Source of the DNA: Deltaproteobacteria bacterium
Lineage (GTDB): Bacteria; Desulfobacterota; Desulfobacteria; Desulfobacterales; C00003060
NCBI GenBank assembly: GCA_030592345.1
Contig: JAUVJO010000004.1
Coordinates: 1-33,356, forward strand
Length of the DNA: 33,356 bases
Direction: 5' to 3'
Of this stretch, positions 840 to 9,628 are shown in pieces. A model generated the notes under the pieces. It was not told the origin of the DNA and did not search any database. It saw only the letters and a program-made list of their open reading frames with translations. Position 1 is the first letter of the stretch. Each line of letters begins with the position of its first letter. Made by a program: the position numbers and the translations under genes.

Positions 840-914
840 TGGAGGCGGCAACCGGATTTGAACCGGTGTATAACGGTTTTGCAGACCGCTGCCTTACCAC
901 TTGGCTATGCCGCC
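840..914 (-). tRNA. tRNA-Cys (anticodon GCA), encoded CCA
   Basis: Reverse complement GGCGGCATAGCCAAGTGGTAAGGCAGCGGTCTGCAAAACCG...CGGTTCGAATCCGGTTGCCGCC-T-CCA; paired acceptor and T arms, anticodon GCA. Confidence 0.95.
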
Positions 915-925
915 ATATTGTGAAT

Positions 926-1000
<75 letters not shown>

Positions 1001-1136: not shown

Positions 1137-1200
1137 CAGGAAACTTCCCTCGGGTGGCCCTGCAAAAAGACAGGATCACGCTGGGGCGCATCCACAACCT

Positions 1201-1745
1201 GGGGGATGCATCCTCTTGAAATCACTTGCACCGCATTTGTGGAGTACATTAAGTGCCTAAAGTGAACTAAAGTGAGCTAAAGTGCCTAAAGTTAAGGTAT
1301 TCTGCCTATTTTAAATATGTTGCGCCGGAGACGCACTGCTTAATCCCGCTAAAGGCAGCGATTTTATGGCGCCACTTAATTTGACACTTTAACCCTACGT
1401 TCAGCGTACTAATCGTTTGGGCTGGAGCTTGGCGTAAAATAAATTATGGCGGTTTCAAGTGGGGCTAACTTCTGGACACGAATTGAAAGGTAGTAATGAC
1501 GCGACTGCTTAATGTGCCAACAGTTCGTAAGCCGCCATAATTTATTTTACAAAATATATTTCCTCTCATAGGCTTATTCTGGACCTTGGACAGAAGGGGT
1601 CAGCTAAACGTAAAATTAACAGCCCCGATAAAATCGCTGCTAAAGGCGGGACTCACTTTCTTTCAATAATAAAACAGTTTCTTCAAGTCCTTAACTTTAG
1701 CTCACTTTAGACACTTTAGGCACTTTAGCTCACTTTCTTTCTTCC
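1201..1745. repeat. Family A inverted-arm iterated-word element (A1), interrupted by a nested insertion
   Basis: Left array 1250-1294 (AAGTGCCTAAAGTGAACTAAAGTGAGCTAAAGTGCCTAAAGTT), right array 1691-1737 (AACTTTAGCTCACTTTAGACACTTTAGGCACTTTAGCTCACTTT); homologous over its length to 3831-4080. Confidence 0.9.
1356..1639. mobile_element. 284-bp non-coding inverted-repeat element (MITE-like) nested in A1
   Basis: Termini CAGCGATTTTAT / ATAAAATCGCTG; flanked by direct repeat CTAAAGG (1349-1355 and 1640-1646); homologous empty site with a single CTAAAGG at 3980-3986. Internal 19-bp perfect inverted repeat 1434-1452 / 1532-1550. Confidence 0.85.
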
Positions 1746-1806
1746 AGAAGGATGCGCAAAAGTTTTTGTCTTCCCCCAACTGTTAGATACGCCCTCAACC
1801 ATGGCC

Positions 1807-3321: not shown

Positions 3322-3824
3322 TGGACAAGGGTAACCTTATTTTCACCATCTTTCAAGCCGGACAGCAATGATCGTACAGGTTTCACAAAAACAGGGTGCA
3401 CAAATTCAGGCGCAATATCGCAAAGGGGCTTCAGCACAAACCGCCTTTGGTGTAATCTCGGGTGTGGAATACGGATCCGGGTTGTTCGTAGAACCAGCTC
3501 ATCAAAAAACAAAATATCTAAATCCAAGACCCTCGGCCCAAACCTCGGGCCCTCAAGCCGTCGGCCCATGGCCTGTTCAATGGCCTGAAGTCTAATCAGA
3601 AGAGCTTTTGGATCAAGACAAGTGCGAACCATAAAAACGCCGTTGATGAACCAATTCTGGTCTTTGAGGTCGACCGGTTCGGTCTCATACAATGGAGACC
3701 GAATCTCTAACAAACAGCCATCCAGGGCCGCAACGGCTCTAATCCCCTTTTGGCAATTGTCAGCCCTGTTGCCAACATTCGATCCCACACCTATGTAAGC
3801 CGTATGGGTATAGGGCGTATTCAT
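3318..3824 (-). CDS. folK: 2-amino-4-hydroxy-6-hydroxymethyldihydropteridine diphosphokinase
   Basis: HTAYIGVGSNVGNRADNCQKGIRAV... RFGPRVLDLDILFFDELVL...IPHPRLHQRRFVLKPLCDIAP. Start taken as MNTPYTHTAYIGVGSN; the longer ORF runs into repeat A2. Confidence 0.92.
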   Translation of the reverse strand: MNTPYTHTAYIGVGSNVGNRADNCQKGIRAVAALDGCLLEIRSPLYETEPVDLKDQNWFINGVFMVRTCLDPKALLIRLQAIEQAMGRRLEGPRFGPRVLDLDILFFDELVLRTTRIRIPHPRLHQRRFVLKPLCDIAPEFVHPVFVKPVRSLLSGLKDGENKVTLVQ

Positions 3825-3830
3825 GACTTG

Positions 3831-4080
3831 GGGGATGCATCCTCTTGAAATCACTTGTACCGCATTTGTAGAGCACATTAAGTGCCTAAAATGAACTAAA
3901 GCGAGTCCCGCTTTTAGCGGGATTGAGGTATTCTGCCTATTTTAAATAGATTGCGACTGAGGCGCACTGCTTAATCCCGCTAAAGGCGGAACTCACTTTC
4001 TTTTAATAAAAAAACTGTTTCTTCAAGTCCTTAACTTTAGCTCACTTTAGACATTTTAGGCACTTTAGCTCACTTTTCTT
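3831..4080. repeat. Family A inverted-arm iterated-word element (A2), uninterrupted paralogue of A1
   Basis: GGGGGATGCATCCTCTTGAAATCACTTG...CATTAAGTGCCTAAAATGAACTAAAG ... TTTCTTCAAGTCCTTAACTTTAGCTCACTTTAGACATTTTAGGCACTTTAGCTCACTTT, near-identical to A1 minus the 284-bp insert. Confidence 0.9.
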
Positions 4081-9490: not shown

Positions 9491-9628
9491 GAAAGTGAGC
9501 TAAAGTGAACTAAAGTGCCTAAAATTGCGTGACTAATAACGAGCTTTTTATATTAATCTCTTCAAGTCCTCAACCCCGCTAAAGGCGGGAGTCACTTTAG
9601 CTCACTTTAGGCACTTTAGCTCACTTTA
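9491..9628. repeat. Family A inverted-arm element (A3)
   Basis: AAAGTGAGCTAAAGTGAACTAAAGTGCCTAAAATT ... TCTTCAAGTCCTCAACCCCGCTAAAGGCGGGAGTCACTTTAGCTCACTTTAGGCACTTTAGCTCACTTTA. Confidence 0.9.

What the first reader, a model, noticed from the sequence alone, without database searches (positions are those of the whole stretch)
1356..1639. 284-bp inverted-repeat element nested in a family A element, with an internal empty-site control
SEEN: A1 and A2 are near-identical except that A1 carries 284 bp bounded by CAGCGATTTTAT...ATAAAATCGCTG, flanked by CTAAAGG on both sides; A2 has a single CTAAAGG at 3980-3986. The target lies in the CCCGC-TAAAG-GCGGG hairpin, around its loop. A perfect 19-bp internal inverted repeat (GTAAAATAAATTATGGCGG, 1434-1452/1532-1550) suggests a second structured unit inside. 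No convincing ORF is present. INFERENCE: non-autonomous element mobilised in trans, perhaps with a preference for palindromes or hairpin loops.
Basis: partly seen in the sequence, partly recalled or inferred. Interest (0 to 1): 0.6.

Follow-up and report, generated by a model that had tools for sequence, protein, structure and literature searches.

The report
Mini-transposon that lands in DNA hairpins
The 284-bp stretch is a gutted, non-coding copy of a bacterial jumping gene; it, a shorter sister copy and their full-length relatives in several phyla land at the tip of GC-rich DNA hairpins, duplicating the hairpin loop plus one base pair on each side.

Summary
1356-1639 is a 284-bp insertion with 12-bp terminal repeats and a 7-bp CTAAAGG duplication, inside a family A element whose other copies hold the empty site. 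It is a MITE. The parent IS was found: a 2.1-2.3-kb element in other Desulfobacterota and, more diverged, in Planctomycetota-lineage genomes, with the same ends, an HTH orfA, a conserved A9 run and an IS4/Tn5-like DDE orfB. The internal 19-bp repeat is the IS leader repeat whose right arm carries the orfA promoter -35 box, not a second element. The same genome has a second, 108-bp copy in the same hairpin of another A element, in opposite orientation. Of 28 element ends from 14 genomes, 20 have CCCG exactly 6 or 7 bp outside the end (background 0.7%), and 26 have a complementary pair closing the duplicated bases. The duplication equals hairpin loop + 1 bp per side (4-nt loop gives 6, 5-nt gives 7). 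No autonomous copy is seen in the window's own genome (90% complete). Hairpin-targeting ISs are known (ISRm22, IS1397, ISPsy8). This looks like an undescribed IS4-related group, but ISfinder could not be searched. Duplex or extruded-hairpin recognition is unresolved.

The parts
1356..1639 (+). 284-bp MITE: non-autonomous, internally deleted derivative of a two-ORF IS4-like insertion sequence
1356..1385 (+). Left end: 12-bp terminal inverted repeat CAGCGATTTTAT followed by subterminal TTAATTTGAC motif shared with the parent IS
   Evidence: same motif at IS ends
1610..1639 (-). Right end: CAGCGATTTTATCGGGGCTGTTAATTTTAC read inward
1349..1355 (+). Target-site duplication, left copy (CTAAAGG = hairpin loop TAAAG plus closing C-G pair)
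1640..1646 (+). Target-site duplication, right copy (CTAAAGG)
1345..1348 (+). 5' stem half CCCG of the target hairpin
1647..1650 (+). 3' stem half CGGG of the target hairpin
1434..1452 (+). Left arm of internal 19-bp inverted repeat; remnant of the parent IS leader
   Evidence: aligned with GTAAAATAAAATATGGCGG in the parent IS leader (L078)
1532..1550 (-). Right arm of internal inverted repeat; in the IS this arm carries the -35 box of the orfA promoter
1546..1574 (+). Decayed orfA promoter remnant (TTTACA - 17 bp - TAGGCT)
1184..1794 (+). Host family A element A1, interrupted by the MITE; itself MITE-like with GGGCGTATC-type termini
3976..3990 (+). Empty target hairpin in A2 (CCCGCTAAAGGCGGA), internal control

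Best explanation
The 284 bp are a MITE made by internal deletion of an IS4-like insertion sequence. The parent has an HTH-encoding orfA, an A9 slippery run and a DDE_Tnp_1 orfB. The MITE keeps both ends plus the leader inverted repeat and has lost both genes. A transposase supplied in trans joins the two element ends to the two strands of a palindromic GC-rich site of the form CCCG-N6/7-CGGG, one base pair below the hairpin loop on each side. The bases between the joints (loop plus closing pair) are duplicated, so the duplication is 6 bp for 4-nt loops and 7 bp for 5-nt loops. Shown by sequence: the ends, the parent IS, the empty site, the target rule and the duplications. Inferred: the trans supply, orfA-orfB frameshifting, cut-and-paste chemistry, and whether the palindrome is read as duplex or as extruded hairpin.
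For: Ends shared with full-length ISs: L078 left end and L080/L079/L103 complete. orfA HTH_28 and orfB PF01609 above cutoff; Tn5 transposase is the top fold match in PDB, E 5.8e-7. A9 at the same GLQKK codons in five elements. Leader repeat and -35/17 bp/-10 conserved. Second copy G000:C346:711-818, 108 bp, same hairpin, opposite orientation to A, duplication CCTTTAG. Flank rule: 20 of 28 ends with CCCG at -10/-11 against background 0.0075, 26 of 28 with a complementary closing pair, 0 of 10 chance-match controls with CCCG. Direct duplications with both ends known: window 7 bp, C346 7 bp, G175 6 bp.
Against: No orfB match in the window's own genome, which is 89.7% complete and fragmented, so the trans source there is not seen. 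G265 has inverted instead of direct flank repeats, and G505's two flanks fit the stem rule but differ. Planctomycetota-lineage ends have CCCT, TCCT or ACCC rather than CCCG stems, and one (G529) fits neither rule. Most distant insertions are known from one end only because assemblies break inside the IS.
Confidence: 0.9

Rival explanations
1. Same element and parent, but the transposase reads the target as ordinary double-stranded DNA: each subunit of a dimer binds one CCCG half-site, and a flexible linker tolerates 6 or 7 bp between them. No hairpin is ever extruded.
For: Most Desulfobacterota and Calditrichaceae targets keep CCCG itself and not merely any stem. A fixed half-site explains the exact 6/7-bp spacing.
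Against: Stems change to CCCT, CCCC and ACCC in more distant members, and the closing pair changes from C-G to A-T in the Calditrichaceae copies while staying paired. This is also expected if the available palindromes simply differ between genomes, so it is weak.
Confidence: 0.5
2. The 284 bp are an old part of family A elements that A2 and others lost.
For: Two family A copies in the genome carry related inserts at the same point.
Against: All legible A copies among the 30 fetched have the uninterrupted hairpin. The insert is in opposite orientation in the two A copies. The same ends occur at unrelated hairpins in G005 and elsewhere, and the direct duplication marks an insertion.
Confidence: 0.01
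3. The second copy arose by transposition of a composite A+MITE unit rather than by independent insertion into the same hairpin.
For: Family A looks mobile itself: conserved termini and a 9-bp duplication in L017. The two inserts share 93% over 88 bp.
Against: MITE orientation relative to A is opposite. The two host A copies are not sisters in the tree, although supports are low.
Confidence: 0.1

Closest known systems
ISRm22 of Sinorhizobium meliloti (IS4 family, IS4Sa subgroup; PMC1525189, PMC2266710)
   Same: DDE_Tnp_1-type transposase, 6-bp direct repeats, all copies inserted at the symmetry axis of GC-rich REP palindromes, some copies with mismatched repeats put down to recombination.
   Different: IS4-family transposases are single-ORF without frameshift; here there are two ORFs with an A9 run. 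tblastn of orfB found nothing in PLSDB, though whether that collection holds an ISRm22 copy was not checked. A duplication length following loop size was not described for ISRm22 in the passages read.
IS1397 / ISPsy8 (IS3 family) and IS110-type ISPpu9, ISPpu10, ISPa11, IS621 in REP palindromes (PMC1525189)
   Same: Site-specific insertion into REP-type palindromes; ISPsy8 sits at the hairpin symmetry axis.
   Different: Unrelated transposases; 0-3 bp duplications for those given (ISPsy8 3, ISPpu9/10 2, ISPa11 none).
dRS3 repeats of Neisseria, ATTCCC-N8-GGGAAT, target of filamentous phage Nf1/MDA (PMC3898611, PMC3046118)
   Same: Many left flanks here (ATTCCCGC...) have the left half of the dRS3 pattern; there too a mobile element integrates in the middle.
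   Different: Different integrase (IS110/492-like) and different lineage; the right halves are mostly unread here.
ISDol1 group (ISNCY)
   Same: From memory only: group typified by a Desulfobacterota element, with 6-7 bp duplications.
   Different: Not testable: no ISfinder sequence available; the size recalled for that group (1.6-1.9 kb) is below 2.1-2.3 kb.

Membership tests
MITE (non-autonomous IS derivative) | Short, terminal inverted repeats, target duplication, no transposase gene | tested here: met
MITE (non-autonomous IS derivative) | Ends matching an autonomous IS | tested here: met
MITE (non-autonomous IS derivative) | More than one copy in the genome | tested here: met
   Only two copies, 284 and 108 bp
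MITE (non-autonomous IS derivative) | Mobilised by a partner in the same genome | tested here: inconclusive
   No orfB in G000, but the assembly is 89.7% complete and fragmented
IS4 family (parent IS) | DDE_Tnp_1 / Tn5-like catalytic core, D(60-110)D(100-150)E | tested here: met
   PF01609 above cutoff; D139-78-D218-107-E326; Tn5 fold hit, model confidence modest
IS4 family (parent IS) | Complete Y(2)R(3)E(6)K motif | tested here: not met
   YPQRWHIE present, K at the required spacing absent
IS4 family (parent IS) | Single ORF, no frameshift | tested here: not met
   orfA/orfB in different frames joined by A9
IS4 family (parent IS) | About 10-bp target duplication | tested here: not met
   6-7 bp
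IS1634 family | NCBIfam NF033559 above cutoff | tested here: not met
   19.8 bits against cutoff 100
ISDol1 group (ISNCY) | Transposase similarity to ISDol1 | not testable with these tools
   No ISfinder sequences available; only a passing mention found

The most novel reading that the evidence does not exclude
The transposase recognises an extruded stem-loop (cruciform or single-stranded hairpin at a fork) and joins the element one base pair below the loop on both strands, so stem geometry rather than a fixed stagger sets the duplication length. This would be a structure-guided DDE transposase.
Probability: 0.3. Interest if true: 0.7.

Novelty: new variant of a known kind. Interest (0 to 1): 0.5.

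Why it matters
REP-like palindromes are known landing sites for several unrelated ISs, but how a DDE transposase reads a palindrome is not settled. This group spans several phyla, comes with a minimal 108-bp non-autonomous derivative as a ready assay substrate, and shows a simple testable rule (duplication = loop + 2 bp) that could separate structure-guided from half-site-guided targeting. Landing in hairpins of other mobile palindromes may also keep such insertions out of genes.

Tried and rejected
Deletion in A2 instead of insertion in A1: rejected by empty sites in the other A copies. Second element inside the MITE: rejected, the inner repeat is the IS leader repeat. Viral carriage: end pattern and orfB not found in IMG/VR. 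Plasmids: no match to orfB or to the MITE in PLSDB. Rfam: nothing. Solved structures by sequence: nothing. Chance matches of the end pattern (L109, L112-L118, L122, L123) were set aside and served as flank controls. The third exact CAGCGATTTTAT in the genome (C197:889) lacks the subterminal motif and is chance. The full-length IS could not be read in G005 because its contigs break about 110 bp into the element.

Full report
Observation. The window carries a 284-bp insert at 1356-1639 with a perfect 12-bp terminal repeat and CTAAAGG on both sides. It interrupts a family A element, A1 (1184-1794), at the hairpin CCCGC-TAAAG-GCGGG. A2 has the same place uninterrupted at 3976-3990, although its own stem has one mismatch (CGGA). 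Among 30 family A copies fetched from the same genome, every one in which this segment could be read is uninterrupted. Insertion, not deletion, is therefore the direction. No ORF of 80 aa or more overlaps the insert.

Second copy. A search of the own genome gave one more place, contig C346:711-818. It is a 108-bp version that has lost the middle between two short repeats, CGTAAAATAAA and CGTAAAATTAA. It sits in exactly the same hairpin of another A element, again with a 7-bp duplication, but the insert is turned round relative to A. The two A copies are not sisters in the tree, though supports are low, so two separate insertions are most likely.

Parent element. The ends occur in a genome of the same genus (G005, MAG Meg22_46_Bin_1) at four contig ends. 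A scan of one genome for each of 84,980 species with the end pattern reached a Desulfobacteraceae MAG with a degraded transposase next to the end (L077), a Calditrichaceae MAG and a Planctomycetales MAG. From the L077 protein, complete elements were found: L080 in G265 (2330 bp), L079 in G175 (2299 bp), and in the phylum of the Planctomycetales MAG L103 (2173 bp) and L104 (2126 bp). L080 and its relatives have an orfA with an HTH domain and an orfB with a DDE_Tnp_1 domain. The two are in different frames joined by an A9 run at the same GLQKK codons, which implies programmed -1 frameshifting or transcript slippage (inference). The catalytic spacing is D-78-D-107-E. The structure model is modest (mean pLDDT 54.8, core better), but its best PDB matches are Tn5 transposase.

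What the MITE kept. The left part aligns with the left end and leader of the parent, and the right part with the right end. In the parent leaders an inverted repeat of the same kind (TATGGCGG...CCGCCATA) lies before orfA. Its right arm overlaps TTGACA, followed after 17 bp by TATCTT or TATAAT. The same TTAATTTGAC motif lies just inside both element ends. The simplest reading (inference) is that one protein, probably OrfA, binds all these sites, so that the leader repeat is an operator and the end motifs are transposase sites.

Target rule. Flanks of 28 element ends from 14 genomes were read inward. Twenty have CCCG exactly 6 or 7 bp before the end, where random positions in the same loci give 0.75%. 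Nineteen also have complementary first and last duplicated bases (background 0.2%). Twenty-six of 28 have this closing pair if the 6-bp frame is used where CCCG is absent. None of ten chance matches of the end pattern without an IS shows CCCG there. Calditrichaceae copies have CCCGA...T instead of CCCGC...G, and some others CCCT, CCCC or ACCC stems. Direct duplications with both sides read are 7 bp (window, C346; 5-nt loops) and 6 bp (G175; 4-nt loop). Duplication length therefore follows loop length as loop + 2, on few fully read cases. Related ends are not statistically independent, so the binomial value printed is only a guide. In the own genome CCCG-N6/7-CGGG occurs 323 times against 115 for the reversed pattern, many of them in family A, so the pool of targets is large and A is a natural host.

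Exceptions. In G265 the two flanks are inverted copies of each other instead of direct repeats, within a near-perfect palindrome of about 50 bp per arm. Conversion between the arms would do this, but that is a guess. In G505 both flanks fit the stem rule but differ, as after recombination between copies; the same was argued for ISRm22 in PMC1525189. G529 fits poorly.

Known context. IS insertion at the axis of REP palindromes is established for several families; ISRm22, with 6-bp repeats and a DDE_Tnp_1 transposase, is the nearest in behaviour (PMC1525189, PMC2266710). The parent IS fails three defining features of the IS4 family: single ORF, full YREK motif, about 10-bp duplication. It is thus IS4-related but outside that definition. 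It may be the ISDol1 group of ISfinder, which could not be tested. Several targets resemble the left half of dRS3, ATTCCC-N8-GGGAAT, a known integration target in Neisseria (PMC3898611).

Verdict. A real MITE with a found parent and a clear target rule. The kind is known; the group and the loop-following duplication appear to be new. Whether the palindrome is read as duplex half-sites or as an extruded hairpin remains open. The confidence values of the best explanation (element, parent, target rule) and of the duplex-reading rival are not exclusive, because the rival differs only in the recognition step.

Noticed in passing
window 1184-1794 and 3813-4078; about 100 matches in the genome: Family A is itself MITE-like: termini GGGCGTATCCAGAAC..TTGGGGG and CCCCCCAACTGTTAGATACGCCC, about 306-338 bp, with a 9-bp duplication AGTGGTGAA in copy L017 and 8-of-9 matches in L013 and L033. 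So the finding is a MITE nested in a MITE; the parent of A was not sought.
   Followed up: partly
L080 152-2481 with flanks: Complete parent IS whose flanks are near-perfect inverted repeats of about 50 bp with the loop inverted on one side instead of a direct duplication.
   Followed up: partly
window 840-1000: tRNA-Cys(gca) and tRNA-Gly(gcc) lie on the minus strand, about 180 bp before element A1.
   Followed up: no
window 9575-9589: Another perfect CCCGCTAAAGGCGGG hairpin, empty, probably a further family A piece.
   Followed up: no
L065 and L068 flanks: In G005 the two target hairpins lie next to another repeat family, CTCTCACAGAGTTC.CAGAGGC.CAGAG.
   Followed up: no
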